Assembly: GCA_012523595.1 (NCBI GenBank)
Contig: JAAYIG010000150.1
Span: 1 to 32,437, forward strand
Length of the DNA: 32,437 nt
Direction: 5' to 3'
Source of the DNA: Fibrobacter sp.
Lineage (GTDB): Bacteria > Fibrobacterota > Chitinivibrionia > Chitinivibrionales > Chitinispirillaceae
How positions within the stretch are numbered: the stretch's first letter is position 1; the number at the start of each line of letters is the position of its first letter. Shown here piece by piece: positions 5,641 through 28,748 of this stretch. The notes below the pieces were generated by a model that worked only from the letters and a program-made list of their open reading frames with translations, did not search any database and had not been told where the DNA came from. The position numbers and the translations under genes are program-made.

Positions 5641-7965
5641 ATGAAAAGAAGAAAGACCAGAAAATCCAGACCCACAGTTGGTCTTTTCATTTCTGACCTG
5701 GAAAATGCCTATACCTATAACCTCTATATGGGGGCCATGGATGCTGCGCAGAGAAGTGATTCAAATCTTGTAATTTTCCCCGGCAAATCTCCCAAAGCCC
5801 CCTATGAATTCGACTATCAGTTTAATGCCGTTTATGAACTACCCTCTGCTGAATCAATCGATGCTTTGATACTGGCTACAGGAACAATCACAAATTTTCT
5901 GTCGTATGAGGAGTTTGAGGCATTTTACAAGAGATATGAGGGAATTCCACTTATAAGTATCTCTATCCCGCTTAGCGGTATCTCCAGTGTCCTGATCGAC
6001 AACAAAATCGGCATGAAAAGAGCATTCTCTCATCTGATTAAGGATCACAATCTCAGGAAAATCGCCTTTATCCGTGGCCCGGAAAGCAATGCCGAAGCAC
6101 AGGAAAGATACCTGGTTTATAAAGAAGCACTTCAGGAAAACGGAATCGAATTTGATCCAGCGCTTGTCTATGAGGGAGATTTCACCTTTTACTCCGCTTT
6201 CAAAGCGATAAATGAGCTTCTGGAAGAGAGGAAAGTGAAATTCGATGCTGTTTCTGCTGCAAACGACGAGATGGCTCTCAGTGTAATGCAGGCATTGCAA
6301 AACAGAGGCTTCCGTATCCCGGCAGATGTAGCCATAATTGGTTTTGATAATGTGGAAAGTGCAAAATTCAGCACACCATCACTTACAACCGTTTCCCAGC
6401 CAATCTATGAACAAGCTCAGAAGGCATTTCAGATTGCACTCGACATGATAAACGGGGGACCTGTGGTAAACCATACCCTTGAGACACAGCTTGTGATCAG
6501 GGAATCCTGTGGATGCATGTCGCAATCTGTAAAAGCTATAGATCTCTGCAGTGTCAGGAAAAAAAGGTGTGCAACCTTAGACGATGATTCTCTTCATAAG
6601 AAATACTCCTTTGAAGACCGTCCCTTTATTCATGATAAGATGATGCAACTGCTTGGGGACCTTTGTAAACTCGATGTGTGCTGCAGTGAGGTCGACAGAA
6701 AATGTAGATGGATTAAAAGCAGAATCACGGAAATACTCTCATCGGAGTATATAGAGGAAGATGATATCCTTACATTTCATAATCTGATCACTGATCTGCG
6801 TCATAAGCTCCTTTGGGCTGCTGATGATGTGGAGAAGATTGCCAGGCTCGAGGACTTTTTTCACCAGGCCCGTGTCATTTTCATGGAATCAGCACTCAAG
6901 ATAAACTCCAAGAAATGGGCACTGCACAAGAAAGATTTTCGTGGTTTGAGAGTAATCCTGAATCTTCTTATTTCCAATGTTTATGACAGAAACAAGACCC
7001 TCAAGACGATAATCCCGCAGCTTAAGTCTATGGGGATATCAAGCTGCTATATCTATTTATATGAGAATTCCTATGTTCATGGAAGAACCGACCGCTGGAA
7101 GTTCCCTCGCAACATCAAACTGTCCATGTCCTACGGGCATCCTGAACTTGCTGAAAAACTGCTGAAAACCGGAACGATAGCTACAAAGAATATATTGAAA
7201 AAGGAACTGTTTACTGCTGAAAAACGCTACACGGCCGTTGTTCTTCCGCTGTTTTACATGGAGGAGCAGCTTGGGTTCCTGGTGTCGGAAATCGACTTTA
7301 TTGACAGTCTGCTTTTTGAATCACTGGTAGTGGAGATCAGCTGTGCACTGAAACTGATGTACCTGATGAAAACGAGGCAGGAGATCGAGGAGAAGCTAAG
7401 GTACGCTCTGTTAGAACTTGAGGAATATAATCAGCAGCTCAATGATATCTCACAGACTGATGAGCTTACCGGACTTCTTAACCGCAGGGGATTCCTGAAT
7501 CACTCCAGACACGATCTTAATGTGTCGAGGCGGATGGGGATAGACGGGCTGCTGTTCTTTGCGGATCTTGATGGACTGAAAAAGATCAATGATACTTACG
7601 GTCACGAGGAAGGTGACAACGCTATAAAAGCTGTGGCTGTAATCCTGAGAAAGACATTCAGGGAGGTCGATATAATCTCAAGAATCGGTGGGGATGAGTT
7701 CACTATCTTTACCATAAACACCTCCATGGATATGTTAGCAGATCTGCAGAAACGGATACACGACCTGTTGGAAGAGTACAACAGCACATCCGGAAAACCC
7801 TACAAGGTCTCTTTCAGCATCGGCGCAGTCCCCTTCTCTGCCACAGGGACGGAAAATATTGAAACCCTGCTTAGCCAGGCCGACCAGCTTCTTTACAAGC
7901 AAAAAAAATTGAACAAAATGAAGCAGAGAAAGCGTTTGCGCCTGGAAAAAACAGATAAACCGTAA
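5641..7965 (+). CDS. LacI-type ligand-sensor diguanylate cyclase
   Basis: 774 aa. Residues about 10-295 form a LacI/periplasmic-binding-protein fold (RPTVGLFISD, HNLRKIAFIRGP, DAVSAANDEMALSVMQAL, VAIIGFDN), ending in the VIRESCGC segment usual at the end of such sensors. There is no LacI helix-turn-helix and no signal peptide, so the sensor acts in the cytoplasm on an enzyme rather than on DNA. Residues about 300-610 are a mostly helical/GAF-like middle. The C-terminal GGDEF domain (from DELTGLLNRRGF) has an intact GGDEF at 683-687 and an inhibitory I-site RxxD (REVD) five residues earlier. It probably makes cyclic di-GMP in response to a sugar-like ligand. The ATG lacks a clear Shine-Dalgarno. 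Confidence 0.88.
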   Translation: MKRRKTRKSRPTVGLFISDLENAYTYNLYMGAMDAAQRSDSNLVIFPGKSPKAPYEFDYQFNAVYELPSAESIDALILATGTITNFLSYEEFEAFYKRYEGIPLISISIPLSGISSVLIDNKIGMKRAFSHLIKDHNLRKIAFIRGPESNAEAQERYLVYKEALQENGIEFDPALVYEGDFTFYSAFKAINELLEERKVKFDAVSAANDEMALSVMQALQNRGFRIPADVAIIGFDNVESAKFSTPSLTTVSQPIYEQAQKAFQIALDMINGGPVVNHTLETQLVIRESCGCMSQSVKAIDLCSVRKKRCATLDDDSLHKKYSFEDRPFIHDKMMQLLGDLCKLDVCCSEVDRKCRWIKSRITEILSSEYIEEDDILTFHNLITDLRHKLLWAADDVEKIARLEDFFHQARVIFMESALKINSKKWALHKKDFRGLRVILNLLISNVYDRNKTLKTIIPQLKSMGISSCYIYLYENSYVHGRTDRWKFPRNIKLSMSYGHPELAEKLLKTGTIATKNILKKELFTAEKRYTAVVLPLFYMEEQLGFLVSEIDFIDSLLFESLVVEISCALKLMYLMKTRQEIEEKLRYALLELEEYNQQLNDISQTDELTGLLNRRGFLNHSRHDLNVSRRMGIDGLLFFADLDGLKKINDTYGHEEGDNAIKAVAVILRKTFREVDIISRIGGDEFTIFTINTSMDMLADLQKRIHDLLEEYNSTSGKPYKVSFSIGAVPFSATGTENIETLLSQADQLLYKQKKLNKMKQRKRLRLEKTDKP

Positions 7966-8126
7966 AAATACGGCCTCCATTAAACCTTTTAACCCCTGTT
8001 TATACTTCCCCTTGCGTATCTCCCCCCGGGATCATACAATATTCTGGGGTTGGTCCCTACAACTGCTCTTGACTCTGTGTAAGATTCTGTTAATAAAGGG
8101 GATAGGGGGAGTTGAAGTAAAAAACC

Positions 8127-8155
8127 TTGACTCAATACCCAATATGTTGTATCTT
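8127..8155 (+). promoter_or_regulatory. Sigma-70-type promoter for smc
   Basis: TTGACT (8127-8132), exactly 17 bp, then TATCTT (8150-8155), about 70 nt before the smc start. The rest of the 7966-8227 gap shows nothing else I can name. Confidence 0.55.
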
Positions 8156-8227
8156 GAATACTTCTGATAGCAACGTATTGTATTTATAAGAAGATTACGC
8201 CCATTTTTCATAATTAGAGGAAAACAC

Positions 8228-11200
8228 ATGATCTTACGGAAGCTCTCGATTTACGGCTTCAAGTCATTCGCTGATAGGATAGAGTTGGAGTTTGGCGAGG
8301 GGATGACCGCTGTGATTGGTCCCAACGGCTGCGGAAAGAGCAATGTTGTCGATGCCATACGATGGGTTTTTGGTGAACAGAAGGCATCGTTGCTGCGCAG
8401 CAGCAACATGGCGGATGTGATCTTTTCCGGAACTCAATCCCGTCAGCCTCTCAATGTGGCCGAAGTGACTTTGACAATCGAGAACAATAAAAAGATCCTT
8501 CCTGTCGAGTACAGGGATGTATCGATCACAAGGCGGATATACAGAAGCGGGGAGAGTGAATATCTGATCAACAAGACCCAGTGCCGCCTTCGTGACATCC
8601 AAAACCTTTTCCTTGATACAGGTGTGGGGAGCAGCGCCTATACTACTATAGAAAATACCATGATTAACTCCATCCTCAGTGACAAGGCTGAGGAGAGGCG
8701 CATATTGTTTGAAGAAGCTGCTGGAATCGGCAAATACAAACACCGCAGAAAAGAGAGCCACCGTCAGCTCGAGAAAACCGCTCAGGATCTTCTCAGAATA
8801 AACGATAAAGTGCAGGAAGCCGACCGTCAGGTCCGTATGCTGGCCAGGCATGTTGAGAAGGCGAAGAGATACAAGGCCTATTATGATGATCTCAGATCTC
8901 TGGAAGTAGGGTTTGAATACCGGCGTTACCTTTCTCTCTCAGAGGCCATGAAAGCCCGTAATGCACAGCTCGAGGAACTGGAAAGCCGCAGGGAAGCTCT
9001 ACGGGCACGGATCGCTACATCAGAATCTCGCGTTGAAAAGATGCAGCTTAATGCTCTGGAACTGGAGAAGGAGCTTGAGATTGCCTCCCGCAATGTAAGT
9101 GAGGCTACCGAGAAGATTATCAGAATTGACCGGGATATTTCCGTCAACACAGAAAGGGCAACAAACCTGGGGCAGAATGCCGAAAGGTTTGATGCAGAGG
9201 TGATCTCTATTGACGGTCAGATTGAAGAGAACACTAATTTACGCACTCAGATTGAAAAGAGTATCATCGAGCGGGAGACACAGCTTCAGAAGAGTGTAGA
9301 GAGGGTTGACGGGGCTACAGACGAACTGGCCCGGTTTGATTCACAGATGCAGAAAAGCAGGGAGAAAGCTGACCAGCTTGGCCGTGACCAGATAGAAATC
9401 ATCAATGTACTGGGTGAGAGCAGAAACACTCTGGGATCTTTGAAGGCAAGATTGAGTAATCTCATCGAGCGCAGGGAACGTGGACTTCGTGAGCTTCATG
9501 GACTTCAGTCAAGGCTGGAGGAGTTTCAGGACGCGATAAGTATATGTAAAGAGCAACTGGCCGCTGTTGATGAGGAAAACCGGAACCTGCTTCAGTCCCG
9601 GGAAGTGCTTCTTGGCAGGATCGAGAAGGAGGAAAAACACTACCATACTTTGGTGGAGCGGGAAAAACATCTCGAAGCCCAGATTGCATCCTGTAAATCA
9701 CAACTGAAGTTTCTTGCCGGTCTTGAGTCTTCTTTTGAGGGATATCAAGCTGGAGTCAGGGAGATTATTACCCGCAAATTGCCCGGGGTAAAGGGCATCA
9801 TAGCTGACCTGCTTTCAGTGACCGATCCGCAATTGATCGGGCTTGTGGAGAGAGTGCTTGGGGACAGAATTCAGACAGTTGTCTTTGAAACAGAGGCACA
9901 GCTTTCCGCAGCGGTAGAGATTCTTGGCAGGGAGAAAATCGGTGTTGCCAGGATGATCTCTCTGGAGCGGCTGGCGGGCATGGCACCTTCAACTGAAGCA
10001 GCGCCCGAAAAAGGGATAAACCTGACGTCAATTGTAAAGGTAGCCGCCGGATGTGAGGTGATAGCTCAGAGGCTTTTAAGCGGTATTGTGATTACAGATA
10101 CTGCCGGAGAGGCGATGGAGTTATCACGTCGGGACAGTGGAAGAAGACTCTTTGTATCCAGGGATGGAGTGATCTGTGAAAGCGACGGCACTGTCACAGC
10201 GGGAACCGGTAAAAAGGAAAAGGCCGGAATACTGCAGCGTAAACAGCAGATCGAGAAATTGACTGCAGATATTGAGACTTTCGAAAAAGAGTACTCATCG
10301 GTGGTCAGTGAGAAGGATACCTGTATTATCAACAGAGACGAAGCGAAAATGGCTCTTATTGAAGTAGATGAGAAGCTTAACAGGGGCCAGCGTCAGCAGC
10401 AGGAACAGCAGACAAATATCAAGCATTACGAGACAGAAACTCAGAATATACTCACCCGCACCACTGCTCTGCAGCCGGAACTCTTGGAAATCGAATCTTC
10501 AATAAAGGAATCAGAAGAGAAAATCGCCACAACAGAGGCGGAGACTGCGACTCTTGAGAGCCGTCGGGATTTGCTTGAACAGCAGGTTGACGAGGCCAGA
10601 AACGAGGTAAGAAACCTGGAAGAGCAGAGACGCTCTCTGATGGAGCACCTGAAAAACGTCGAGCTTGAAACCCATGGACTGAAAAACAGGATCAATCAGG
10701 ACCGGGCAGATATAGAGCGTCTGGGAAGAGATATCAAGACTTTGGCAGAACGTAAAGCTGCCAAGATAGAGGATAAGCGTAAAGCTCTCAGTGAGAAAGA
10801 GGAACTGGAGAGGGGCCTGGAATCTCTGAGAATAGAGCTTGAGAATGCGAAACAGGTTCGTGCAGAGAAGGAAGAGGTGCGCGACAGGAAAAGAGAAGAA
10901 TACAACGGGAAACTGCTTGAGATAGAGGAGGTCAGAAAGGAATCCCGGACCGACCAGACTGATCTTGAACATGTCTCCAATCAGGTCCACGACTGCGAAA
11001 TAAAGCAGACCCGTGATGAGCAGGAGAGCCGCCGGATAAGAGAGAAGATCTGGGAGGCTTACGAGATCGATCTTGAATCTCCTCCGGAGAATATTCCTGT
11101 GATCGAACAGGAAGACAGTGATGTTGTCCAGAACATTTCCATGCTCAAAGAGCGTATAAAGCATGTCGGGCAGGTCAACATGGCTGCACTGGAGGACTAT

Positions 11201-17197: not shown

Positions 17198-19078
17198 TCA
17201 TCCGCTCAACGCATCCTGCACCGCCTCCGCCAACTGCGCGGAGACAAAGGGCTTCTGCAAAATCCCGATAACCCCTTCGTTTAGAATCTGCTGACGATCT
17301 TCGTCCATCCTGTAGCCTGTTGCAATAAGCGCCTTGATATCGTCCTTTATTTCCTTAAGACGGCGGAAGCACTCTCTGCCGTCTATACCCGGCATCATAA
17401 TATCAAGGATCACTAAATCGATATCCGAGGGGTCGCGTTTTAAAATCTCTATGGCATCATTGCCGTTATTGCATACAGTTACCTTGTATCCCAGCCATGA
17501 AAGCATCTCCTGCACTGCGTCAAGAAGAAATACTTCGTCATCCACAACAAGAATGTGCCCTTTACCATGCACGAATGCCCGGGGAGAATCCTTGTCACTG
17601 GATCGGGCCTTCCGATTGACTGGGAAATACAATGTAAAGGTGGTTCCGACACCTGGCTGGCTCTCGACATCTATGTAACCGTTATGACTTTTTACAGTCC
17701 CGTAAGCGCTTGCAAGCCCAAGCCCCGTTCCCTTGCCCACATCCTTGGTGGTATAGAAAGGCTCAAAGAGGTGGGAGAGAACTTTTTTATCCATTCCGGT
17801 TCCTGTATCTTTTACAGAAACAGCAACATAGTACCCTGGTGCGACAACATAGGCGTGTGATTTTGAAAAACTCTTGTCAAGGTCAACATTTTCTGTCTTG
17901 ATAACTATCTGCCCGCCATCAGGCATCGCATCCCTCGAATTGAGAGCCAGATTCATCACTGCGCTCTGAAACTGCGCCGAGTCGCCCATTATCACGTAGT
18001 CAGAAGCATTAAGTTCGCAGGATATTTTAATATTCTTGTCAATGGTGTGCTTAAGCAGCTCAATAACATCCCCAAGCACATTGTGAATATTAAACGATGA
18101 CATCTGGAGTTTGCCTTTTCTGGCAAAAGTCAGAAGTTTGCTTGTGAGATCTGATGCCTTGGTGGAGGCCGAAAGAATCATCTGGGCATATTTATCTAAC
18201 TTGGGATCCCTTCCATATCTGTGACGGATTATATCCGCGTAACCCGAGATAGCGCCCATTATATTGTTGAAGTCATGCGCTATGCCTCCTGCAAGCTGTC
18301 CCACCGCTTCCATTTTGTAAATGGCACGGAACTGCTCCTCCAGCTTCATTTTCTCTGCTTCTGATTTCTTTCTCTCTGTAATATCCCTTGCTATGCAGAT
18401 TACAGCCCCGCTTCCGTTATTTGATGCATTTACAAGTGAAAAATGGGCTTCAGCAGGAAAACTCTTTCCATCCCTTCCTTTCATCTGGCACTCTACCTTG
18501 ATCCGCTCCTTCTGTTTTATCTCTGTTAATATGGACTCCACCTTCTGACGGCTCTCGGAGGAAACCAGGTCCAGGATACTGATCTCTGTACCCGGTTCTG
18601 TGTAATCCCCGAACATCCTGTTTGAAGAACTCTGATTCCCCAACAGCACTGTCCCGCCGAGATCACAAAGCATTATGGCGTCAGGAGAGGTCTCCACCAG
18701 GCTTCTGTACCGCTCCTCACTCTCTCTCAAAGCACTCTCTGCTTTTTTACGCTCCGAAATCTCCTCCAGTAACTCCTCTCTCTGCTTGAAAAAACGGAGT
18801 GCCAGTGATGCCAATTGCCCGAAACCGTTGCCTTTGGCAGCCAGTCTTTTTATCTGAGAAAGATCTCCTGTGTCAAGAGCTTTCTGAATCTGCTGCAGGG
18901 GTCGGTTGACGAAAAAATGAAGGACTGGAAAAATGATAAAAAGCAGTACAACTATGCCTGTCAGAACCTGATAAAAATCGATTTTAAACTTCAGCGAAAT
19001 AAGGAAGAAGATCAGGAGAAGAACAGCGCAAATCAAAAGCAGACGGGAAAAGACACTAATATGTACCCTTGTATACAT
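17198..19078 (-). CDS. Hybrid sensor histidine kinase (PAS-HisKA-HATPase-REC)
   Basis: 626 aa. Two membrane helices lie at about 10-30 and 35-55 with almost no periplasmic loop, then a HAMP-like or linker stretch. A PAS domain runs from about 120 to 235 (ESEERYRSLVETSPDAIML to ICIARDITERK). The phospho-acceptor is His268 in LAGGIAHDFNNIMG. The ATPase has NSRDAMPDGG (N box), DTGTGM, and GKGTGLGLA. The C-terminal receiver (HILVVDDEVFLLDAV) has its phosphorylated Asp at 559 in LVILDIMMPG, and the KPF lysine. The ATG has GAAGGAG 5 nt upstream. The fused receiver lacks an output domain, so a separate partner is likely, and no response regulator is adjacent. Confidence 0.93.
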   Translation of the reverse strand: MYTRVHISVFSRLLLICAVLLLIFFLISLKFKIDFYQVLTGIVVLLFIIFPVLHFFVNRPLQQIQKALDTGDLSQIKRLAAKGNGFGQLASLALRFFKQREELLEEISERKKAESALRESEERYRSLVETSPDAIMLCDLGGTVLLGNQSSSNRMFGDYTEPGTEISILDLVSSESRQKVESILTEIKQKERIKVECQMKGRDGKSFPAEAHFSLVNASNNGSGAVICIARDITERKKSEAEKMKLEEQFRAIYKMEAVGQLAGGIAHDFNNIMGAISGYADIIRHRYGRDPKLDKYAQMILSASTKASDLTSKLLTFARKGKLQMSSFNIHNVLGDVIELLKHTIDKNIKISCELNASDYVIMGDSAQFQSAVMNLALNSRDAMPDGGQIVIKTENVDLDKSFSKSHAYVVAPGYYVAVSVKDTGTGMDKKVLSHLFEPFYTTKDVGKGTGLGLASAYGTVKSHNGYIDVESQPGVGTTFTLYFPVNRKARSSDKDSPRAFVHGKGHILVVDDEVFLLDAVQEMLSWLGYKVTVCNNGNDAIEILKRDPSDIDLVILDIMMPGIDGRECFRRLKEIKDDIKALIATGYRMDEDRQQILNEGVIGILQKPFVSAQLAEAVQDALSG

Positions 19079-19218: not shown

Positions 19219-21792
19219 TTAGATCCGACCCAGATCCTTATTCTCTACCCAGCCGCTGACACCATTTGGAAGGCTGACCAGTGACCATCCGCCCTCGGTC
19301 TTTCTGATACGGAATTTTGTGCCTTCATGCACAGTAAAGAGTATCTTATTTCCGTCGGGCTGATTCCTGGCATCGGATGATGGAGCAAGGAGAATGGCAT
19401 AGGAGATCTTCTCAAGATCGTAAATTTTATAACCCACAGACAGCCCCGTTGTTCCAAGGAAGATTGCAAGAAGTACCGAGAGATAGATAAGCCAGAGACG
19501 TGCATTGCCGGAAAGATAAAAAGCTGCTGATACAAGGATAGATATCACAAGTAATACCGAGAATGAAAGCCACAGTTGTGTCTTGAGAGGCATCCAGATA
19601 TGCATCTGCCATAGCACAGTTTCCAGGAAACCACGCTCAGGATCAGGTACCCTGTCAACGATATTTGAGTTTACAAAACGGATATTACTCATGATATCCT
19701 GGTCTCCTGGGGAGAGCCTGGCTGCTTTCTCATAATACAAACGTGCCATGCCGATTTTTTTCAGACGATAGCAGGTATTGCCAAGATTGTAATAAACAGT
19801 ACTGTTGTTTATTCCTGACTCCACTATCTTCTCATAATAGTACATCGCGCTGTCGAACTGCTGCCCATCATAAAACCTGTTGGCTTTCTCAAACCAATTA
19901 TCTACCGGAGCTGCATTCGTGTAAAATGCAAATCCGGTCAGCAGAAGTAAAACAACCCCTGTCATTGTAACCTTACTCTTTTCTTTAGTGTTTTTCAGCC
20001 CTGTGATGAACGCTTCAGTTTTTGAGATCAGTTCTTTTCTGGTTTTCTCATCAAGACTCTTTCCCCCGAACCTGTAGCTGTCAATGTTCTCTATAAAAGA
20101 GGCCATATCTGACACTATCTTTTCATCTGCACAGTACTTTAACAGTTCGATTTTCAATTCTTCCAGAGTCCTTCCTGTAGCAGGAAAACCGAATTTTTCA
20201 GATATAAATCTCTCGATTACTTCGGAAATCCTTCCCAGAAATTCCGATGGCGGCATCTTTTGAGCGGATCTTCTGACAGAGGAGAGATTTTTCCTCGCCA
20301 GGCTGACTGCCCTTCGCCTGATCTGCTGAGCCGCGTTCTTCTGCTTCCGGTCCGCCTGGTATCTATATAGAATTGATATCGCGAAAATGATCAGCGGCAA
20401 TGGCAGGAGAAGGAAGAAGAGAGGTTCACGGTATGGACGTTCCTCCTGGTTGGCTATTTTTGTCCCTGTTTTGATATACCGTATATCCCTGCCCACCTCG
20501 CGGATCTCCTCCTGAGTCAGATATCTGGTCTGTGGTTTACTTCTAGCTTTCCCTTTTGTCACATTTATATTGATCTGTCCTGATGAGGCGGTTTTGAATG
20601 TTCCTGTCTGTGGATCAAAATAGGGAAAAGTCACAGGAGGAATAACAAGTGTACCCTCCTGTCTTGGGATAAGCAGGTATTTGTAAAACTTTCTTGCGGA
20701 TATTCCATTTGCTCCGGTATCGGAATAAACCTGACGTTCAGGTTTGAACACTTCACAATCATCGAGTTTGGGGAGAATTACATCACCCATGTCAGCCGGC
20801 CTTGTCGAACCCCTTACCGTCACTTTCAATGTCAAAGCCTCACCTGCCGGGACTTCCTGATGATCCGTGACAGCTTCAATCGAGAATTTACCCACAGCAC
20901 CGGAAAAACCGGCCGGTGCAGGGGGCAGCGGCTTTACAGTAATAGAAAGGGAGTTGGAATGTGCATTTTTCGGGACAGCCTGTACACCACCACCGAAAAA
21001 GTTCATATCGAAAAAATCATCGAAGAAGGGATCTATTCTGCGGCGCTGAGAACGTCTGAGTTCCTGGTATTCAAATGGAACCGGGGGAATCTCAAATTTC
21101 CCGGCACTCACCGGAAAAACCGAGTACTTCAGAGAGTATGTATTGTAAATTTCCCCGTTGATCCGCTCCGAAGCTGTTGTGATCTGGGTCGAAAAAAGTC
21201 TGCTGAGAGAAAAATTCTTTCCGAAAGCTTCCTCGAGCTTCTCCAGTACAGGCATGAAACTGTTGCGTACCTCTGTGGGTGAATTTGCTTTCTGCACAAC
21301 TTTAAGTGTGAGCATCGCCTGTTCACCTACATAAAGAGTCTTTTTATTGAGCAGAAGGCTGACTTTTATAGCAGGATTTTGCACTGGCTCATCAGTCACT
21401 TTAAAAGAGATCGGATCTGTCTGGTAAACCGTGCCATTGATTTCGACTTTCAGCGAAGGGAAAACGAAAGATCCTGTCGATTTCGGCGTGATAACATAAT
21501 AGAACTGGGTATGGATCTCGTTTTTCTGAGTCGCCCTTCCGTTGATGATCTGAATCGAAGAGGATGTTGATTGACGGGAATCGGTTTTAAGCAGTGAAAA
21601 CCCCTCAACAGGGGAGACCTGGGGGACAGGTATTGCACCAATTTTTTTACTGCTGACCAGTGTAGCTGTTATCACGATCTGCTCTCCCATGGTGACGATG
21701 GTTCTCTCTGTAGTGGCTGAGAACCGCACCTGTGCTCCGGCGCTGAAAACCGGGAAAAGCAGCAGAACTGGTATAAGCATTTTTGTTTTCAT
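19219..21792 (-). CDS. BatD-BatE fusion protein (oxygen-tolerance / Bat system)
   Basis: 857 aa in one frame. Residues 1-20 are a signal peptide (MLIPVLLLFPVFSAGA). About 20-430 is the beta-rich periplasmic BatD region with repeated Ig-like blocks (FSATTERTIVTMGEQIVITATL, IKVSLLLNKKTLYVGEQAMLTLKV, FSIEAVTDHQEVPAGEALTLKVTV). A membrane helix lies at about 455-478, with a cytoplasmic helical tail to about 605. A second hydrophobic start follows at Met610 (MTGVVLLLLTGFAFYTNA). Then come TPRs (STVYYNLGNTCYRLKKIGMARLYYEKAARLSP), two more membrane helices and a C-terminal SH3-like domain (GTKFRIRKTEGGWSLVSLPNGVSGWVEN), which is the BatE layout. BatE is normally separate. An internal TAAGG before Met610 could still allow separate translation. 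Confidence 0.85.
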   Translation of the reverse strand: MKTKMLIPVLLLFPVFSAGAQVRFSATTERTIVTMGEQIVITATLVSSKKIGAIPVPQVSPVEGFSLLKTDSRQSTSSSIQIINGRATQKNEIHTQFYYVITPKSTGSFVFPSLKVEINGTVYQTDPISFKVTDEPVQNPAIKVSLLLNKKTLYVGEQAMLTLKVVQKANSPTEVRNSFMPVLEKLEEAFGKNFSLSRLFSTQITTASERINGEIYNTYSLKYSVFPVSAGKFEIPPVPFEYQELRRSQRRRIDPFFDDFFDMNFFGGGVQAVPKNAHSNSLSITVKPLPPAPAGFSGAVGKFSIEAVTDHQEVPAGEALTLKVTVRGSTRPADMGDVILPKLDDCEVFKPERQVYSDTGANGISARKFYKYLLIPRQEGTLVIPPVTFPYFDPQTGTFKTASSGQININVTKGKARSKPQTRYLTQEEIREVGRDIRYIKTGTKIANQEERPYREPLFFLLLPLPLIIFAISILYRYQADRKQKNAAQQIRRRAVSLARKNLSSVRRSAQKMPPSEFLGRISEVIERFISEKFGFPATGRTLEELKIELLKYCADEKIVSDMASFIENIDSYRFGGKSLDEKTRKELISKTEAFITGLKNTKEKSKVTMTGVVLLLLTGFAFYTNAAPVDNWFEKANRFYDGQQFDSAMYYYEKIVESGINNSTVYYNLGNTCYRLKKIGMARLYYEKAARLSPGDQDIMSNIRFVNSNIVDRVPDPERGFLETVLWQMHIWMPLKTQLWLSFSVLLVISILVSAAFYLSGNARLWLIYLSVLLAIFLGTTGLSVGYKIYDLEKISYAILLAPSSDARNQPDGNKILFTVHEGTKFRIRKTEGGWSLVSLPNGVSGWVENKDLGRI

Positions 21793-22553
21793 TTAAAATG
21801 CTCCTGTGTCCATGAACGGATTGTCCGGCACAACAGCTTGACATCAGGAACCCGTGAGAAATTGTGGTCTGATCCATTTACGACATGGTAATCGGCAGGG
21901 ATTCCGGATCTTTCAGCACACTTTACATATCTTCCGGACTCCTCAACTGATATCGATTCATCTTTGTCACCCTGGAAAAGCAGGATCCGTCCTTTGAAAT
22001 CAGCACAGAGCGCTTCCACCGGATCGATGCCTTTGAGGCTGTCCAGAAATCCGATACTCATCTCGTGTGGGCCGTTTTCATAGTAACCATCTGAATTCGG
22101 GCCTGATTGAAGAAGGTTTTTTCTGCGGTGAATAAGACCTGTGGGATCGCCTACAGGGGAGAGAAGTACTATCCCCGATGCATCGAGAGGTCCTGCGCAG
22201 AATGCGGCTATCATCCCACCGAAACTGTGTCCCAGAAGAATCAGTTTTGAGGGCTTGTGTGTTTCCTTTAAAAAGGCTGCTACACCTCGAAGATCGGATT
22301 TCATCGTTTCCACGTTCATGTCCGCAAATAATCCATCACTCTCACCTGAACCGGTGAAATCGAATCTCATGGAGTTGACACCGGCACTTTCCAGTTCCCT
22401 GGCAATCTTCACAAACAGGTAACCCGGACCCATTCTCTGTCCTGTAAAACCATGACAGAACACAAACCACACCCCGTTTTGCGGTCCGGCCAGATGCAGG
22501 GAACCTCTGATTGTCTTTCCGCATACAGGCAATTCAAAATATTGAAACGACAT
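21789..22553 (-). CDS. Alpha/beta hydrolase (serine hydrolase)
   Basis: 254 aa single-domain alpha/beta hydrolase. The oxyanion segment FCHGFTGQRMGP precedes RFDFTGSGESDG. The nucleophile is Ser110 in GHSFGG, the acid Asp198 (FQGDKDESI) and the base His230 (GSDHNFS), so the triad is complete. No signal peptide is present, so it is probably cytoplasmic. Substrate cannot be assigned; the architecture resembles BAAT/dienelactone-type esterases and acyl hydrolases. It starts 7 nt after batC and its stop overlaps the BatD-BatE start by 4 nt (ATGA), so it is translationally locked into the Bat operon between batC and batD. Confidence 0.88.
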   Translation of the reverse strand: MSFQYFELPVCGKTIRGSLHLAGPQNGVWFVFCHGFTGQRMGPGYLFVKIARELESAGVNSMRFDFTGSGESDGLFADMNVETMKSDLRGVAAFLKETHKPSKLILLGHSFGGMIAAFCAGPLDASGIVLLSPVGDPTGLIHRRKNLLQSGPNSDGYYENGPHEMSIGFLDSLKGIDPVEALCADFKGRILLFQGDKDESISVEESGRYVKCAERSGIPADYHVVNGSDHNFSRVPDVKLLCRTIRSWTQEHFK

Positions 22554-22559
22554 AATTCC

Positions 22560-23441
22560 TTACCAGTCCTTTTCGGGTCTTGGTGCCTTTGCACCCTTTT
22601 TCTTCAATGGTTTGTTCAGCGAGTCCGCATCATCGGCGTAAAGTTCTATTATCCTTTCCGCCTCCTCTTTCTTCATATCCTTGCTGTCATCTTCCTGCTG
22701 CTGAGCGTTGGCCTGCTGCTCTTTCTGTTCCTGTTGCTTCTTGTTTTCATCACTCTGGTTCTGCTGTTCTTTATTCTCCTGCTGCTGGTCCTCCTTTTTA
22801 TCCTGCTCTTCTTTATTCTGCTGGTTCTGATCTCCCTGGTCTTTCTTATCCTGATTATTCTGATTTTCCTGTTTGTTCTGCTTATCTTTATCCTGCTTGT
22901 CCTGCTTGTTCTGGTTATTATTCTGGTTATTCTGCTTTTCCTGATTTTCTTTTACCTTCATATGCGCAAGCTGGAGATTCCACTTTGCGTCTTTGTCATC
23001 TGGACGAAGGTCCAGTGATTGAATATAGTTCTGCAGAGCCTCCTTATACTTTTCAAGTGCACCCTGATCCCCGCTCTGCTCCATCTGCTGGGCTTGCCGG
23101 AAGAGAATATTTCCGAGATTATAAAATGCGTCCGCACGCTTCTTTTTGTCCTCTTCGGAGAGAGCACCGGTGTATGCCTCTCCGGCTTTGTCGAACTCTC
23201 CCAGTCTGTAAAGGGCGGACCCTTTGTTCATCTTCAAACTGTTGTCGGAAGGGGAGAGCAGAAGTGCGTCATCGTAGAGCTTTAACGCTTCCTCATACCT
23301 TTTTTCATTGTAAATACGATTCGCCTTCTTGTTCTTTGAATAGACTTCGTCTGCCTCTGACACTGCTGCAGAGATAATAATCACCAATAATGGAAGGAGA
23401 ATCGTTCTGTTAAATATGTTACAGATTTTCATATCACTCAA
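22560..23441 (-). CDS. batC: BatC-like TPR protein with Lys/Gln/Asn-rich tail
   Basis: 293 aa. A signal peptide or N-terminal anchor (RTILLPLLVIIISAAVSEA) is followed by TPR units (ANRIYNEKRYEEALKLYDDALLLSPSD, DAFYNLGNILFRQAQQ, YKEALQNYIQSLDLRPDD) as in BatC. Residues about 165-265 are almost only Lys, Gln, Asn, Glu and Asp. The end (EAERIIELYADDADSLNKPLKKK) is conserved-looking. The frame begins with TTG at 23441, where AAAGG is well spaced. An ATG at 23432 (MKIC...) is the alternative, with a distant Shine-Dalgarno. It overlaps the batB stop by 8 nt. The antisense of the tail makes a spurious Leu/Ile-rich frame. Confidence 0.85.
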   Translation of the reverse strand: MSDMKICNIFNRTILLPLLVIIISAAVSEADEVYSKNKKANRIYNEKRYEEALKLYDDALLLSPSDNSLKMNKGSALYRLGEFDKAGEAYTGALSEEDKKKRADAFYNLGNILFRQAQQMEQSGDQGALEKYKEALQNYIQSLDLRPDDKDAKWNLQLAHMKVKENQEKQNNQNNNQNKQDKQDKDKQNKQENQNNQDKKDQGDQNQQNKEEQDKKEDQQQENKEQQNQSDENKKQQEQKEQQANAQQQEDDSKDMKKEEAERIIELYADDADSLNKPLKKKGAKAPRPEKDW

Positions 23442-24456
23442 AACGGCCTTTCCACTCGTGTTTTTTCACACTTCGTTCAGATATGAAAAATTCCACCATC
23501 AGCATTATCAGCGCTATCAGTAAAAATATCTGGTATCGCTCTTCGAAAGTAGCAAGATTGGCAGTTCCGAAATCTTTTTTTTCCATCCCGGAAATTTCCT
23601 TCATTATTTCCGACAGGGAGAGGTCTGTCCCGGCATGGAAATACTTTCCTTTCCCTTCTACCGCGATCTTCTCCAGTATAACCGGATCCAACCTTGTCAT
23701 CACAAGACTTCCGGACGCGTCTTTTTTGTAAATGACATTGCCTGAACCCCTGCTTACCGGCACCGGCACTCCGCTCTCTGAACCAACTCCTACGGTATAG
23801 ATCACCACTCCCTCTTCTGCGGCGGCTTTTGCCGTCTCCACAGCTTTCCCCTCGTGATCCTCACCATCGGAAATGAGAATCATCACTTTGTGCTTGCGTG
23901 CTTTGGAGCGGAAAGCCTCGGATGCCTGCTTTATGGCATCCCCGAGAGCTGTTCCCTGAATCTCTACCCATCCGGTAGATACCGCACTGAGAAACATCTT
24001 TGCAGCACCATAGTCAAGGGTAAGGGGACACTGAACATAACTCTCACCCGCAAATACAATTATTCCGATCCTGTCACCTTTAAGTATATCGATCAGTTTT
24101 GCTATCTCATGCTTTGCACGGTCGATTCTGTTGGGCGCGATATCCTCTGCAAGCATACTCTGTGAGATATCCAGGGCAACCATGATATCGATCCCTTTAC
24201 GCTCTACCATCTCCATCTTGGCTCCGAAACGGGGCCGGGTCAGCGCAATGGTCATGAAAAGGAAATACGCGCAGAAAAACAGGCATTTAACAACCTGCCT
24301 GGTGATGCTCGATGAGGGTGTTAATTTACCGATAAGATCGAGTGAGGCGAAACGGCGAAGTGCAGCACGCTTGCGCTGAAACGCCCAGATAAAAAATCCG
24401 GCGAACAGTGGCAGAAGAAAAAGAAGCAGAAAAAACTCAGGATTACCGAATCTCAT
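23434..24456 (-). CDS. batB: BatB, VWA-domain membrane protein
   Basis: 340 aa. Two N-terminal membrane helices (about 7-25 and 57-73), a von Willebrand A domain from about 88 to 280, and a C-terminal helix (FLLIALIMLMVEFFI). The metal-ion adhesion site DISQS has Asp96, Ser98 and Ser100 intact, with the distal Asp in ISDGEDHEG. The TALGDAI segment supplies the conserved Thr. In the Bat family BatA and BatB form a membrane complex with the VWA domain facing the periplasm. A GGGAG lies 4 nt before the ATG. It is second of the paired VWA genes, 10 nt after batA. Confidence 0.92.
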   Translation of the reverse strand: MRFGNPEFFLLLFLLPLFAGFFIWAFQRKRAALRRFASLDLIGKLTPSSSITRQVVKCLFFCAYFLFMTIALTRPRFGAKMEMVERKGIDIMVALDISQSMLAEDIAPNRIDRAKHEIAKLIDILKGDRIGIIVFAGESYVQCPLTLDYGAAKMFLSAVSTGWVEIQGTALGDAIKQASEAFRSKARKHKVMILISDGEDHEGKAVETAKAAAEEGVVIYTVGVGSESGVPVPVSRGSGNVIYKKDASGSLVMTRLDPVILEKIAVEGKGKYFHAGTDLSLSEIMKEISGMEKKDFGTANLATFEERYQIFLLIALIMLMVEFFISERSVKKHEWKGRFE

Positions 24457-24466
24457 CTCACTCCCG

Positions 24467-25471
24467 TTAAGGTATGCGTCTGAAACGGGTATGCTGAAGT
24501 ATCAACTCCAGCATCAGTAGAATAAAACCCGCCCACAGCCACATGTAAAAACGTTCATTATAGCTTGTGTAAATTGTTGTCTTTATCTCTGTTTTCTCGA
24601 GCTTGTCTATCTGATCGTATATTTCCTTGAGTTTTTCGGGGTTTTTTGCCCGGAAAAACTTTCCGTTGGTCAGTTGTGCTATCTCCTGAAGTGTTTTTTC
24701 GTCAAGATCCGATTCCATTTTCTGAATCTGACGGACGGTCTCTCCGGTAAAAGGATTCTTCATCTCTACCGGTATGGGCACCAGTCCCTCTCTGCCCACT
24801 CCTATTGTGTAAATCTTGATACCTAGTTCTCCGGCCGCCTTTGCTGCTGTTATCGGTGGCACTTCTCCGGCATTGTTGGCTCCGTCGGTTAAAAGTATCA
24901 TTACCTTGCTTTTAGCTCCTGAGTCCTTGAGCCGGTTGGCGGCTGTGACTATAGCTGTCCCGATGGCGGTCTGGGAACTGAAATCAGTAAATGTAACTTC
25001 ACTGACAAACCGGGAAAGGATATTGTAATCAAGAGTCAGAGGACACTTTGTAAAACTGCGGGCACCGAAAACCACCAGGCCTATGCGGTCATGCTGTCTC
25101 TTGCTTATAAAATCGACAATGGTCTGCTTTGCGACTTCGAGACGGTTGTCTGGCTGGAAATCCAGAGCCTTCATGGAGGTTGAGATATCGAGTACAAGCA
25201 TGATATCAACTCCCTCAGTGGTTACCTCCTCATCTGTGCGCCCCTCCTGAGGACGGGCGAGGGCAATGATAAGAAGGCCTGTTCCAAGCAATCTGAGAAC
25301 CAGAAGAATGTGGCGGCTCCGTACAAAAAAAGAGGGAGGTACCTGCTTGACCACTGATAGATCGGAAAAACGCACTGCAGGCCTGAATTTACGCTCTCTC
25401 CTTATATAAACCCAGATTATGGGAATCCAGAGCAGGAAAAGGAACAGAAATTCAGGATCTCTGAGTCTCAT
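24467..25471 (-). CDS. batA: BatA, VWA-domain membrane protein
   Basis: 334 aa with the same plan as its neighbour: membrane helices at about 6-22 and 54-72, a VWA domain from about 88 to 300, and a C-terminal helix (MWLWAGFILLMLELIL). The metal site DISTS (Asp95, Ser97, Ser99) is intact. TAIGTAI and LLTDGANNAG complete it. GLVVFGARSFTKCPLTLDY is the usual Bat/YfbK-type strand. The start overlaps the upstream gene by 4 nt (ATGA). batA and batB are clearly an old tandem duplication (CPLTLDY and the metal site are shared). BatA is assigned by position as the first of the pair. Confidence 0.92.
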   Translation of the reverse strand: MRLRDPEFLFLFLLWIPIIWVYIRRERKFRPAVRFSDLSVVKQVPPSFFVRSRHILLVLRLLGTGLLIIALARPQEGRTDEEVTTEGVDIMLVLDISTSMKALDFQPDNRLEVAKQTIVDFISKRQHDRIGLVVFGARSFTKCPLTLDYNILSRFVSEVTFTDFSSQTAIGTAIVTAANRLKDSGAKSKVMILLTDGANNAGEVPPITAAKAAGELGIKIYTIGVGREGLVPIPVEMKNPFTGETVRQIQKMESDLDEKTLQEIAQLTNGKFFRAKNPEKLKEIYDQIDKLEKTEIKTTIYTSYNERFYMWLWAGFILLMLELILQHTRFRRIP

Positions 25472-26409
25472 TTGCCCTGACCTCCCACTCCTGCCTCGAC
25501 CTTTTCCCCAAGAGGCTTCGTTGCCTCTAAAAACTCTCTCACCTCTGTGCCGAACCTTTCCAGAACAGCATCGTCGGGAATTTGACGGGCGAACTTGACC
25601 GGATCAGAAGCAGGGAAAAACCACTCAACCGATCTCCTGAGCTTGACTTCAAGGCCCGAAATCCCAACCCAGGCATTCATCTCCTCTGTTGTGAAATCTG
25701 AGGCATTGATCTCATACCGTCTCCCGATATATCGCTTGAAAATCTCGGAAAGCTCAAAAGTGTACTCCCTGATAAGACCTTTCTGAAGGTACTGCTTTGC
25801 CTCCAGCGCTCTCAATGCCTCAATAGCCTCTTCATAGGGCGGTTTGGGCGGGGGAGCAGTCTGCTCTTTGCGCAGCCGTTTCAATAAGAGCTTTGTCAGG
25901 TACACTCCTGCTGCAATGGCCACAGCGCCTGAAAGAAGCCATATCCACCAGAGCGGGGCTTTGCCGGCGCTTTGCTGAGGCTTTATGTCTTTCAGTTCAA
26001 GAATGCTGTCGTTAGTATTGAGTACAGAAATCACTTTCAGAGGGATACTGGTGGAAAACAGTGTGTCGATGCGGTTTTCCTGCTCATGGATGAATGGGAG
26101 GGAGGGGAGAGTGCAGCTCTCAGGTGTATAGGTGGTGATCACATATTCAAATGTCACACTGTCCGATTTCTCGCGCTCGGTACGGTGCATATTCCAATCT
26201 TTGATAATGATGTTACCGAAGCTGTTTTCATGCGCCGGAGGAGTAAGTGTGGTACCTTTAGGTATTATTGCGGAAACTTTAAAGAGGATCTTGTCTCCCA
26301 CAGTCAATTCTCTGCTGCTTACCGTGGTATAAAGAACAGATGAACTGGCTGAAAATGCAATCGAGATGACTAAAATGGCAATCCTGCTTATGGAATTTTT
26401 CCAGGTCAC
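25468..26409 (-). CDS. BatD-like/DUF4381-type membrane protein of the Bat operon
   Basis: 313 aa. A signal peptide (about 8-24, IAILVISIAFSASSS) is followed by a beta-rich extracytoplasmic domain (SSRELTVGDKILFKVSAIIP, then DSVTFEYVITTYTPESCTLP) that looks like a single BatD-type Ig block. A membrane helix lies at about 152-175 (WWIWLLSGAVAIAAGVYL). The cytoplasmic tail has PPYEEAIEALRALEAKQYLQ and YTFELSEIFKRYIGRRYEINASDFTTEEM, typical of DUF4381/BatD tails. In Bat clusters such a gene usually sits between DUF58 and batA; here DUF58 is missing. It overlaps the upstream DUF445 gene and batA by 4 nt each. Confidence 0.8.
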   Translation of the reverse strand: MTWKNSISRIAILVISIAFSASSSVLYTTVSSRELTVGDKILFKVSAIIPKGTTLTPPAHENSFGNIIIKDWNMHRTEREKSDSVTFEYVITTYTPESCTLPSLPFIHEQENRIDTLFSTSIPLKVISVLNTNDSILELKDIKPQQSAGKAPLWWIWLLSGAVAIAAGVYLTKLLLKRLRKEQTAPPPKPPYEEAIEALRALEAKQYLQKGLIREYTFELSEIFKRYIGRRYEINASDFTTEEMNAWVGISGLEVKLRRSVEWFFPASDPVKFARQIPDDAVLERFGTEVREFLEATKPLGEKVEAGVGGQGK

Positions 26410-27020
26410 GCTTTTATATCTCCCGCGATAATCATCCCTACCTGTACTAACCCGATCAGAAACCCCAGTACACCTCCCAGGTATTCAATCGCCTTCAGTT
26501 CACGGGAAGCGATTGAGAAGACGATTGACTCCAGTTTGGAGACTTCAAAATCCTTAATTTTATCATAGACGATTTTTCTGAAATCAAGTCTGGATTCCAC
26601 TGTTTCAAAGAGGGAATCGATAGTGCCGGGAATCTCCTTCTGCAACTCCTCCATCAGGGCATCGGTCAACCTGGATACTACCTCCGGAGATACAAGCATC
26701 ATAAGCAGTGTATTGGAAGTAATCTTTTCATCAATAAAATGACCGATTCTGGATTTTATCACTTTGCCGGTCTGATTGTGGAAATCTTCAGACTGGATAA
26801 TGGCGTGGATATCTTTGTTGGATATCAGTTCCTTTTCAACGGTTTCAGCGATTTTTTCCGCTAATTCCAGTTTCCGTTTGGGCAGAAGACCCATGATACG
26901 GAACCAGAGGAAGCGGATCTCCCTGCGGGGCCGGAAAATCATCTTAACGGCCAGGAAGTTTGTAAACCAGCCGATAAGCGCGGAGATAACAGGTATTGCA
27001 CAGTAAGTAGCGATCTGCAT
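26406..27020 (-). CDS. DUF445 family membrane protein
   Basis: 204 aa. The N-terminus (IPVISALIGWFTNFLAVKMIFRP) is the DUF445 hallmark: a membrane helix running into a TNxLA-K-x-FRP motif. A long helical cytoplasmic or periplasmic middle follows, then a C-terminal helix (LGGVLGFLIGLVQVGMIIA). It is the first gene of the leftward Bat operon and overlaps the next by 4 nt. The ATG has no Shine-Dalgarno, and a candidate promoter lies so close (27034-27063) that the leader would be very short. The function of DUF445 is not established. Confidence 0.85.
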   Translation of the reverse strand: MQIATYCAIPVISALIGWFTNFLAVKMIFRPRREIRFLWFRIMGLLPKRKLELAEKIAETVEKELISNKDIHAIIQSEDFHNQTGKVIKSRIGHFIDEKITSNTLLMMLVSPEVVSRLTDALMEELQKEIPGTIDSLFETVESRLDFRKIVYDKIKDFEVSKLESIVFSIASRELKAIEYLGGVLGFLIGLVQVGMIIAGDIKA

Positions 27021-27033
27021 GGATCAGAATACG

Positions 27034-27063
27034 ATTTTAGAGTAAAATTTATTCTTATTCCAA
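27034..27063 (-). promoter_or_regulatory. Candidate promoter of the Bat operon
   Basis: Read leftward: TTGGAA (27063-27058), 18-bp spacer, TAAAAT (27039-27034). Transcription would start around 27027, leaving about 7 nt before the ATG at 27020. Confidence 0.4.
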
Positions 27064-27088
27064 GCACTGAAATTGCAGATGGAATAAG

Positions 27089-27332
27089 GATTCAGTAATT
27101 CAGGAGTCAGAATTCAGGGGTTCAGAATTCAGCGTGGCCTGAGAATAAACCTACAGAAACTTCTATTTTAAGTTTTTATTGCCTGTATTCGGAACATTCT
27201 CAATATCGCAAGAATCAGATAGGTCTCGACCAGATGAAACCTTTGCCGGTTACCGCACTCTGTCTCCCGAATTCTGTCTTCTGAAACTGATTCTTGTTTA
27301 CTTAATTCTCAATTCTGAATTCTTTTTCCTGA
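27089..27332. repeat. GAATTC-rich repeats in opposed orientation
   Basis: The left part (27089-27132) has ATTCAGGAGTCAGAATTCAG- and TTCAGAATTCAG-type units. The right part (27269-27332) carries GAATTCTGTCTTCTGA and AATTCTCAATTCTGAATTC units, which read as the reverse complement type. The 140 bp between show no gene. Confidence 0.55.
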
Positions 27333-27449
27333 ACGGTATGCATAAATTAAGTTTCAGCAGGCCTTTTTTTCAATACTTTCCAGCCCTGGGATGCTTATTC
27401 ATATTAACAGGGCCTGAAATGTTCCATGTACTGCACGTTTCCGGGGTCG

Positions 27450-27466
27450 GCATCGGTATCGGTATC
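27450..27466 (+). repeat. GGTATC-type hexamer run
   Basis: GCATCGGTATCGGTATC, preceded by GGGGTCG. It is similar in style to 19149-19202 at the other end of the Bat operon. Confidence 0.5.
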
Positions 27467-27681
27467 GTAACGAATAGCTTCAGAAAAAAGCCCGGGGAGT
27501 GTTTATCAGAGACGCGGAAATAGTCTCGAACTGAGATTAAGCTGATTGATTATTATAAAGAAGAGAAAAATCACCAGAGACCCAGGGGGAGAATAGAATT
27601 AGTAAAGTGAGGGGAAGGGGGAAAGTGTTTATAAGGTTTCTTTGTAGGAAACGGTTTGTTCTTTTTGTATGTGGGTTGCTG

Positions 27682-27700
27682 TTTCACCTCAGAGGTGAAA
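27682..27700. promoter_or_regulatory. 19-bp perfect palindrome, copy 1 (operator-like)
   Basis: TTTCACCTCAGAGGTGAAA is symmetric around the central A at 27691, with 9-bp arms. It shares TTCACC-Y-CAGAGGTGAA with copy 2. Confidence 0.6.
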
Positions 27701-27742
27701 TAGTGATTTAACCTGTTAAAACTTGGCCTTACAACTTCATAA

Positions 27743-27761
27743 ATTCACCCCAGAGGTGAAT
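27743..27761. promoter_or_regulatory. 19-bp palindrome, copy 2 (operator-like)
   Basis: ATTCACCCCAGAGGTGAAT, with one mismatched pair. Its centre is 61 bp from copy 1, close to six turns of B-DNA. Confidence 0.6.
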
Positions 27762-28154
27762 CAAGGAACCTTCCACCCCCTCACCCCACTACACCCTCCG
27801 TTTCCCAATATCCCCATCAATAATAAAAAACATTGCTATTATAACAACAAACAGACTTTGCTAATATCAATTTCCCGATTCCTTCCTAATTTATTTACCA
27901 ACGGTAAAAATAAACCGCATCGGAGGTTTCCTTCCTGTCTACAAAACGCAAATCCGCTCTGCACTTCTCTATGTCAAACAGAAAAAGTACACCTATCATC
28001 CTCTCCGACTGGGTACAAACCAGAAAAGCCCCTCAGACACCCTTTATCTTCCCATCTCTTTAAAAATCAAAAACTTCCGTTATTTTAAACCCGGGTGTAC
28101 CCATTTTCAGTTCAAAAAAGCCCTAAACTATCCGGAAATTTTCGTTATGTTTTT

Positions 28155-28183
28155 TTGAAACCGGAAAAATGTCTCCGTATAAT
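28155..28183 (+). promoter_or_regulatory. Near-consensus sigma-70 promoter for the 58-aa gene
   Basis: TTGAAA (28155-28160), 17-bp spacer, TATAAT (28178-28183, perfect). Expected start near 28190, giving a 35-nt leader to the ATG at 28225. Confidence 0.75.
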
Positions 28184-28224
28184 CGTTATTAAAAGGTGAA
28201 GACAACCCGAAGAAAGGAGAGAAT

Positions 28225-28401
28225 ATGAGTAAAAAGGGGGAAGGTGTATTATATGGCATCGAGTACAAATTCCTCAGGAAAGAATTAAGGGCGGAAGCCG
28301 TAAGAAGAGCTGTTGAGCAGTTGGTTGGAAAAAACAAACCCCTGGCTGGCGATGATGAAAGGAAAAACGGAACCAGAACGACAAGAAGCTTGAAGGATTG
28401 A
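28225..28401 (+). CDS. 58-aa basic small protein, unknown function
   Basis: The ATG at 28225 has AAGGAG 6 nt upstream and a near-consensus promoter 40 nt further up, so expression signals are the best in the window. The product begins MSKKGEGVLYGIEYKFLRKE and continues as a charged, probably helical segment (LRAEAVRRAVEQLVGKN) with a basic tail (TRTTRSLKD). There is no signal peptide, membrane helix or cysteine. I do not recognise a family. It lies alone, convergent with the zinc-ribbon gene, about 460 bp downstream of the paired palindromes. It could be a small DNA- or RNA-binding protein, a remnant of a larger gene, or a standalone regulator. Confidence 0.6.
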   Translation: MSKKGEGVLYGIEYKFLRKELRAEAVRRAVEQLVGKNKPLAGDDERKNGTRTTRSLKD

Positions 28402-28477
28402 TTTCGGCCCAGCTACACCCGTTTCATCTTTAGACATTGTAAAAGCAGCGATTCCGGAAAGGCCGGGTTTTAGTCAT

Positions 28478-28729
28478 TCAGGGAGCTGATTTAAATCTCT
28501 CCCAGATCGATCTTCCTTTTCTTGATGGGCGCCAGATAAACTTGCATGCTGTGCATTTTATCCTGCGTTTACCCTTAAGAGTCCTGACAGGGGCAAAAAA
28601 GAAAGGATCGTAATATTCTGTTGCTTTACTTCCGCATTTAGGACAGCGGTCTGAGGGAGGCTGCCAGAAAGAATCCCAGAGATCAAAGAGTATCCATCCC
28701 GATGAATCACGGCGTTTCCGGCTAGACAT
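28478..28729 (-). CDS. Small zinc-ribbon protein
   Basis: 83 aa. Two CxxC knuckles, Cys29/Cys32 (RCPKCGSK) and Cys59/Cys62 (IKCTACKF), 26 residues apart, give a zinc ribbon. The N-terminus is Arg/Lys-rich and the middle aromatic (GWILFDLWDSFWQPP, YYDPFFFAP). It follows dgt by 19 nt with AAGGG about 5 nt before its ATG, so it is probably the third gene of the phosphatase-dgt operon. The fold suggests nucleic acid or protein binding. No closer assignment is possible. Confidence 0.7.
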   Translation of the reverse strand: MSSRKRRDSSGWILFDLWDSFWQPPSDRCPKCGSKATEYYDPFFFAPVRTLKGKRRIKCTACKFIWRPSRKGRSIWERFKSAP

Positions 28730-28748
28730 AGTACCCTTTCGTCAGATT

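What the first reader, a model, noticed from the sequence alone, without database searches (positions are those of the whole stretch)
19219..27020. Rearranged Bat operon: DUF445 at the head, a hydrolase inside, no MoxR or DUF58
Seven genes overlap by 4-8 nt or are 6-10 nt apart. The canonical leaders MoxR ATPase and DUF58 are absent from the 1.2 kb upstream and replaced by DUF445. An alpha/beta hydrolase with a complete triad sits between batC and batDE. Such tight coupling suggests both newcomers act with the Bat membrane complex, possibly on a lipid, acyl or peptide substrate. This is the strongest candidate for a little-described variant system in the window.
Basis: partly seen in the sequence, partly recalled or inferred. 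Interest (0 to 1): 0.66.

Follow-up and report, generated by a model that had tools for sequence, protein, structure and literature searches.

The report
Split Bat operon with added genes
In one order of fibre-degrading bacteria the widespread Bat membrane-complex operon has been split in two: its ATPase genes sit elsewhere in the genome, and a small membrane-protein gene at the front plus an esterase gene in the middle are inherited with the rest, which makes them candidate parts of a poorly understood stress-protection machine.

Summary
The seven-gene operon is real, and nearly all of the described anatomy holds. It belongs to a Chitinispirillaceae genome (order Chitinivibrionales, Fibrobacterota) and is not unique to this assembly. 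Of 40 genomes of the order, 21 carry DUF445; each has one copy, and all 21 copies lie directly in front of the DUF4381-like gene and batA. The esterase occurs in 17, always directly before batD. Its Ser110-Asp198-His230 triad is invariant; its nearest solved relatives are a lipase and feruloyl esterases.

MoxR and DUF58 were not lost. They form a separate operon (MoxR-TPR-DUF58-M20 peptidase), and this DUF58 is the orthologue of the Bat-linked one in outgroup families that keep MoxR-DUF58-BatA. In one clade the head slot holds an unrelated membrane protein, DUF554, instead of DUF445.

Outside the order the link vanishes: none of 64 other DUF445 loci is Bat-linked, and in Bacteroidota only one of about 32 genomes shows a (convergent) neighbour.

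Best reading: a lineage-specific, bipartite Bat system with a variable membrane accessory at the head and an optional cytosolic serine esterase. The architecture is well shown; physical membership of the newcomers and any substrate are inference. New variant of a known kind.

The parts
26406..27020 (-). DUF445 (PF04286), short 204-aa form, first gene; two TM segments (7-25, 181-199), helical middle predicted cytosolic
   Evidence: (3e-29)
25468..26409 (-). DUF4381-like Bat protein ('CCX'): N-terminal signal/TM, middle TM 151-169, cytosolic tail; GTG start overlaps the DUF445 stop by 4 nt
   Evidence: PF14316 7e-5, below cut-off; same position in canonical operons
24467..25471 (-). BatA: BatA N-terminal domain + VWA with MIDAS D95-x-S-x-S
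23434..24456 (-). BatB: VWA with MIDAS D96-x-S-x-S
22560..23441 (-). BatC: TPR protein with Q/N/K/E-rich tail (start uncertain: TTG at -8 or ATG at +1 relative to the batB stop)
21789..22553 (-). alpha/beta hydrolase, serine esterase type, no signal sequence; triad S110-D198-H230
19219..21792 (-). BatD-BatE fusion, 857 aa (BatD part about 1-610, BatE TPR/SH3 part about 611-857)
   Evidence: fused in several genera, separate with 4-nt overlap in others

Best explanation
This is a lineage-specific, bipartite form of the Bat (MoxR-VWA) envelope system of Chitinivibrionales. One operon makes the cytosolic ATPase side: MoxR, a TPR protein, DUF58 and usually an M20 peptidase. The operon in this window makes the inner-membrane/periplasmic side: the DUF4381-like protein, BatA, BatB, BatC, BatD and BatE. 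I infer that MoxR and its DUF58 adaptor act in trans on the cytosolic tails of the DUF4381-like protein and BatD. ATP-driven remodelling would then pass through BatA/BatB (VWA domains with MIDAS sites) and the TPR proteins to maintain envelope proteins under stress. DUF445, made first, is most likely a small inner-membrane accessory that anchors or scaffolds the complex; the same slot is filled by the unrelated membrane protein DUF554 in one clade. The hydrolase is most likely an optional cytosolic serine esterase made in step with BatC and BatD, acting on an acyl ester at or near the membrane. Shown: gene content, order, conservation, orthology of the split-off DUF58, intact catalytic triad. 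Inferred: physical association, topology, substrate, stress role.
For: DUF445 is single-copy and directly upstream of Bat in 21 of 21 order genomes that have it, with a plausible start of the next gene at -8 to +12 nt in the 17 intact loci inspected. In f11 genomes with canonical MoxR-DUF58-Bat, DUF445 stands elsewhere. The esterase is directly before batD in 17 of 17 order genomes that have it, 4 of them on contigs broken near batC. The split MoxR-TPR-DUF58-M20 operon recurs through the order (L052-L071). The DUF58 tree puts the split-off gene with Bat-linked DUF58 and far from the genome's second DUF58. DUF554 sits in the head slot in 6 of the 7 genomes that have it, all in one clade of the BatA tree. 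MoxR-Bat stress roles: PMC11834572, PMC3557215.
Against: No interaction, expression or phenotype data exist for this lineage. DUF445 and the esterase are absent from many genomes that keep Bat, so neither is essential. Outside the order no Bat link was seen. The DUF445 model is poor (pLDDT 74, pTM 0.39) and has no structural match. Coupling of DUF554 is looser (-4 to 147 nt). The function of Bat itself is unsettled: in Leptospira biflexa bat mutants had wild-type morphology and growth.
Confidence: 0.55

Rival explanations
1. Hitch-hiking: after MoxR-DUF58 left, DUF445 (and in one clade DUF554) came to lie in front because it brought a promoter; it shares expression with Bat but no function. 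The esterase is likewise a passenger.
For: Both newcomers are dispensable and lineage-restricted. Two unrelated families occupy the head slot. DUF445 is free-standing elsewhere.
Against: No free-standing copy in any of 21 order genomes, although the DUF445 proteins have diverged to 43-50% identity; the close spacing is kept over that distance; both slot occupants are small inner-membrane proteins.
Confidence: 0.3
2. DUF445 took over the function of MoxR and/or DUF58, so the system works without the ATPase.
For: Position only: DUF445 stands where MoxR-DUF58 stand in outgroups.
Against: A strong DUF58 (E 1e-54 or better) is kept in 35 of 40 order genomes, and the 5 without are only 68-86% complete; it sits with MoxR in a conserved operon and is the orthologue of the Bat-linked one. 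DUF445 has no ATPase or VWA features.
Confidence: 0.03
3. The esterase is a feruloyl/hydroxycinnamoyl esterase for plant-fibre breakdown, parked in the Bat operon, and has no envelope role.
For: Closest solved folds are a Thermoanaerobacter lipase and feruloyl/cinnamoyl esterases; members of this order are described as chitin or cellulose degraders.
Against: At most 30% identity to those; always directly before batD and single copy in the order, not in another cluster.
Confidence: 0.25

Closest known systems
Bacteroides aerotolerance (Bat) operon with MoxR at its head (moxR-DUF58-batABCDE)
   Same: BatA, BatB, BatC, BatD, BatE in the same relative order; MoxR and DUF58 present in the genome
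   Different: MoxR-DUF58 in a separate operon; DUF445 at the head; esterase between batC and batD; BatD and BatE fused
Canonical Bat operon of other Fibrobacterota (families f11 and part of f8; L041, L043, L045, L047, L050, L051)
   Same: Same core proteins, BatA about 47-53% identical
   Different: MoxR-DUF58 in front, often two BatC-like genes, no DUF445, no esterase
Rearranged or fused bat clusters of spirochaetes (Leptospira, Borrelia; PMC3557215)
   Same: Bat genes with fusions and extra neighbours
   Different: In Leptospira moxR stays in the cluster; the neighbour named there is htpG
DUF445 family (PF04286)
   Same: Conserved N-terminal IGW-x-TN-x-x-A-x-x-M-x-FRP and C-terminal EL-x-x-IE segments
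   Different: Short 204-aa form; Bat-linked only in this order as far as tested
Feruloyl/cinnamoyl esterase and TTL lipase group of alpha/beta hydrolases (7q4h, 7wwh, 3pf8, 2wtm)
   Same: Fold (TM-score 0.76-0.86) and triad
   Different: 19-30% identity; encoded within bat; region 159-163 modelled poorly

Membership tests
Bat operon | BatA and BatB: N-terminal double TM, VWA with MIDAS DxSxS, C-terminal TM | tested here: met
Bat operon | TPR protein BatC after BatB | tested here: met
Bat operon | BatD domain and BatE TPR/SH3 at the end | tested here: met
   fused in one ORF
Bat operon with MoxR at its head | MoxR ATPase (and DUF58) at the head of the same operon | tested here: not met
   absent from the contig; present on contig C198. 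The original B. fragilis bat genes are the five batA-E (PMC3557215), so membership in Bat itself stands
Bat operon | Role in aerotolerance/stress resistance | not testable with these tools
   needs mutants
DUF445 (PF04286) | Match above the Pfam gathering score | tested here: met
   103.5 bits against 33.8
DUF4381 (PF14316) | Match above the Pfam gathering score | tested here: not met
   23.6 against 27.2 bits; described as DUF4381-like only
Feruloyl-esterase-like alpha/beta hydrolase | Fold and Ser-Asp-His triad | tested here: met
Feruloyl-esterase-like alpha/beta hydrolase | Activity on hydroxycinnamoyl esters | not testable with these tools
   needs enzyme assay

The most novel reading that the evidence does not exclude
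DUF445 and DUF554, two widespread families of unknown function, are interchangeable membrane subunits of a split Bat machine, and the esterase is its catalytic output, so that Bat in this order is an ATP-driven envelope acyl-processing complex.
Probability: 0.15. Interest if true: 0.65.

Novelty: new variant of a known kind. Interest (0 to 1): 0.42.

Why it matters
The Bat system is found in Bacteroidota, spirochaetes and relatives, but what it does is still open. Two families of unknown function (DUF445, DUF554) have almost no literature: 9 and 3 papers in the library hold the names, none with the name in title or abstract. A lineage in which DUF445 is found only at the head of bat, and in which DUF554 stands in its place in one clade, gives a direct genetic handle on both. 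The clean separation of the ATPase half from the membrane half also offers natural modules for reconstitution.

Tried and rejected
Loss of MoxR/DUF58: rejected. An arrangement unique to this assembly: rejected. Misassembly: rejected, since the same order recurs in many independent genomes. A structural clue to DUF445: a sequence search of the PDB and Foldseek on its model gave nothing. RNA elements in the window: no Rfam match; promoter-like sites near chance. Esterase outside the phylum: only weak relatives in 3 of 23 genomes, whose neighbourhoods were not examined. DUF445-Bat in Bacteroidota: of about 32 genomes with both, one (G168) has them about 2 kb apart, in convergent orientation and with the long DUF445 form.

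Full report
What is there. On the minus strand, 27020 to 19219, seven genes follow each other with gaps of -4, -4, +10, -8 (or +1), +6 and -4 nt: DUF445, a DUF4381-like protein (called CCX here), BatA, BatB, BatC, an alpha/beta hydrolase, and a BatD-BatE fusion. The VWA domains of BatA and BatB carry DxSxS. Upstream lie 1.7 kb without a convincing gene (the two ORFs tested there have no Pfam match; no Rfam match) and then a dGTPase-like HD gene. The window is the whole of contig C150 of a 4.1-Mb genome.

Which organism. The same-genus genome G001 has a Bat contig of the same length (16,936 nt) and the same layout as JAAYYB010000198.1, a MAG labelled Fibrobacter sp. Other close relatives are labelled Chitinispirillaceae and Chitinivibrionales. 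The group is therefore Chitinivibrionales, Fibrobacterota (inferred from labels).

MoxR and DUF58. Both are in the genome, on C198, as MoxR 6670-7659, a TPR protein 7669-8616 (weak peptidoglycan-binding match), DUF58 8613-9494 and an M20 peptidase 9491-10690. Of 19 further order genomes examined (L052-L071 without the f9 locus L066), 17 show MoxR and DUF58 together, apart from Bat, often with the TPR and M20 genes; L068 and L069 show DUF58 without a recognised MoxR in the stretch. In outgroup family f11 and part of f8, MoxR-DUF58 stands directly in front of CCX-BatA. A DUF58 tree groups the split-off and the Bat-linked proteins together, with the genome's second DUF58 on a very long branch. 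So the ATPase half was separated, not lost. The f9 genome G041 has the separate MoxR-TPR-DUF58 operon and no DUF445 hit, which suggests that the split came before DUF445 arrived.

DUF445. Among 40 order genomes, 21 carry it, all single copy, and all 21 copies lie one gene upstream of batA (positions compared). One copy (G005) holds an internal stop. In f11 it stands away from Bat. Of the best 80 DUF445 loci in the GTDB collection, 16 are from this group and all are Bat-linked; the other 64 (Planctomycetota, Bacteroidota, Verrucomicrobiota and others) show no Bat, MoxR or DUF58 gene within the fetched flanks, some of which are short. Of roughly 32 Bacteroidota genomes with both DUF445 and BatD, one has them close together, in convergent orientation. 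The link is thus real and, as far as tested, specific to this order.

An exchange in the head slot. In genera g4 and g11 the gene in front of CCX is DUF554, another small membrane protein of unknown function. Seven of 61 genomes have DUF554; in six it sits there, and the seventh (G009) has DUF445 in the slot and DUF554 elsewhere. On the BatA tree the DUF554 rows fall in one well-supported clade nested among DUF445 rows. Some g11 genomes have neither. Spacing is looser than for DUF445.

The hydrolase. Seventeen order genomes have it at E below 1e-50; in 13 it lies between batC and batD on one contig, and in four it lies near a contig end and is followed by batD. Two weaker hits (G004, G041) are not linked. 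The triad is invariant in 12 sequences. The model is good (pLDDT 88.5) and matches a Thermoanaerobacter lipase and feruloyl esterases (TM about 0.85, 27-30% identity for the best). It has no signal sequence, so it is probably cytosolic. The tree needs four changes for its presence and absence: most simply one gain after f7 branched off and later losses (direction is inference).

How it may work. From the literature, MoxR-Bat systems are tied to stress tolerance, and a large membrane complex has been proposed (PMC3557215, PMC11834572). Positive-inside hydropathy suggests that the VWA domains of BatA/BatB face the periplasm, that CCX and BatD have cytosolic tails, and that the DUF445 middle is cytosolic (inference). 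I therefore propose that MoxR-DUF58, made elsewhere, act on those tails, that DUF445 (or DUF554) serves as a membrane accessory, and that the esterase trims an acyl ester close to the complex. Only the architecture is shown. Hitch-hiking remains a serious rival for both newcomers.

Verdict. New variant of a known kind, moderate interest; the DUF445/DUF554 exchange is the most useful new lead.

Noticed in passing
L025:11228-11956, L024:6536-7264, L033:10945-11679, L030:11169-11987, L032:3291-4001: DUF554 (PF04474) takes the place of DUF445 in front of the Bat operon in genera g4 and g11; six of seven DUF554-bearing genomes have it there.
   Followed up: yes
L008:6670-10690 (G000 contig C198): Conserved second operon MoxR-TPR-DUF58-M20 peptidase; the TPR protein and M20 peptidase are additions relative to canonical MoxR-DUF58.
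   Followed up: partly
window 19219-21792: BatD and BatE are fused in this and several other genera and separate with a 4-nt overlap in others, a flickering fusion that suggests they act together.
   Followed up: partly
window 23434-23441: The apparent TTG start of batC at -8 is produced by the last codons of batB (F-E-stop); the ATG at +1 is the likelier start.
   Followed up: yes
L013:10208-10633: The Bat-linked DUF445 of G005 is interrupted by an in-frame TAA (141 aa); pseudogene or assembly error.
   Followed up: no
window 27021-28748: 1.7 kb between the dGTPase-like gene and DUF445 without convincing genes or known RNA; 0.8 kb in the same-genus genome.
   Followed up: partly
window 5641-7965: Protein with a LacI-type periplasmic-binding-like domain joined to a GGDEF diguanylate cyclase domain.
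   Followed up: no
window 17198-19078: PAS-histidine kinase-receiver hybrid just downstream of the Bat operon; a similar gene follows Bat in several relatives.
   Followed up: no
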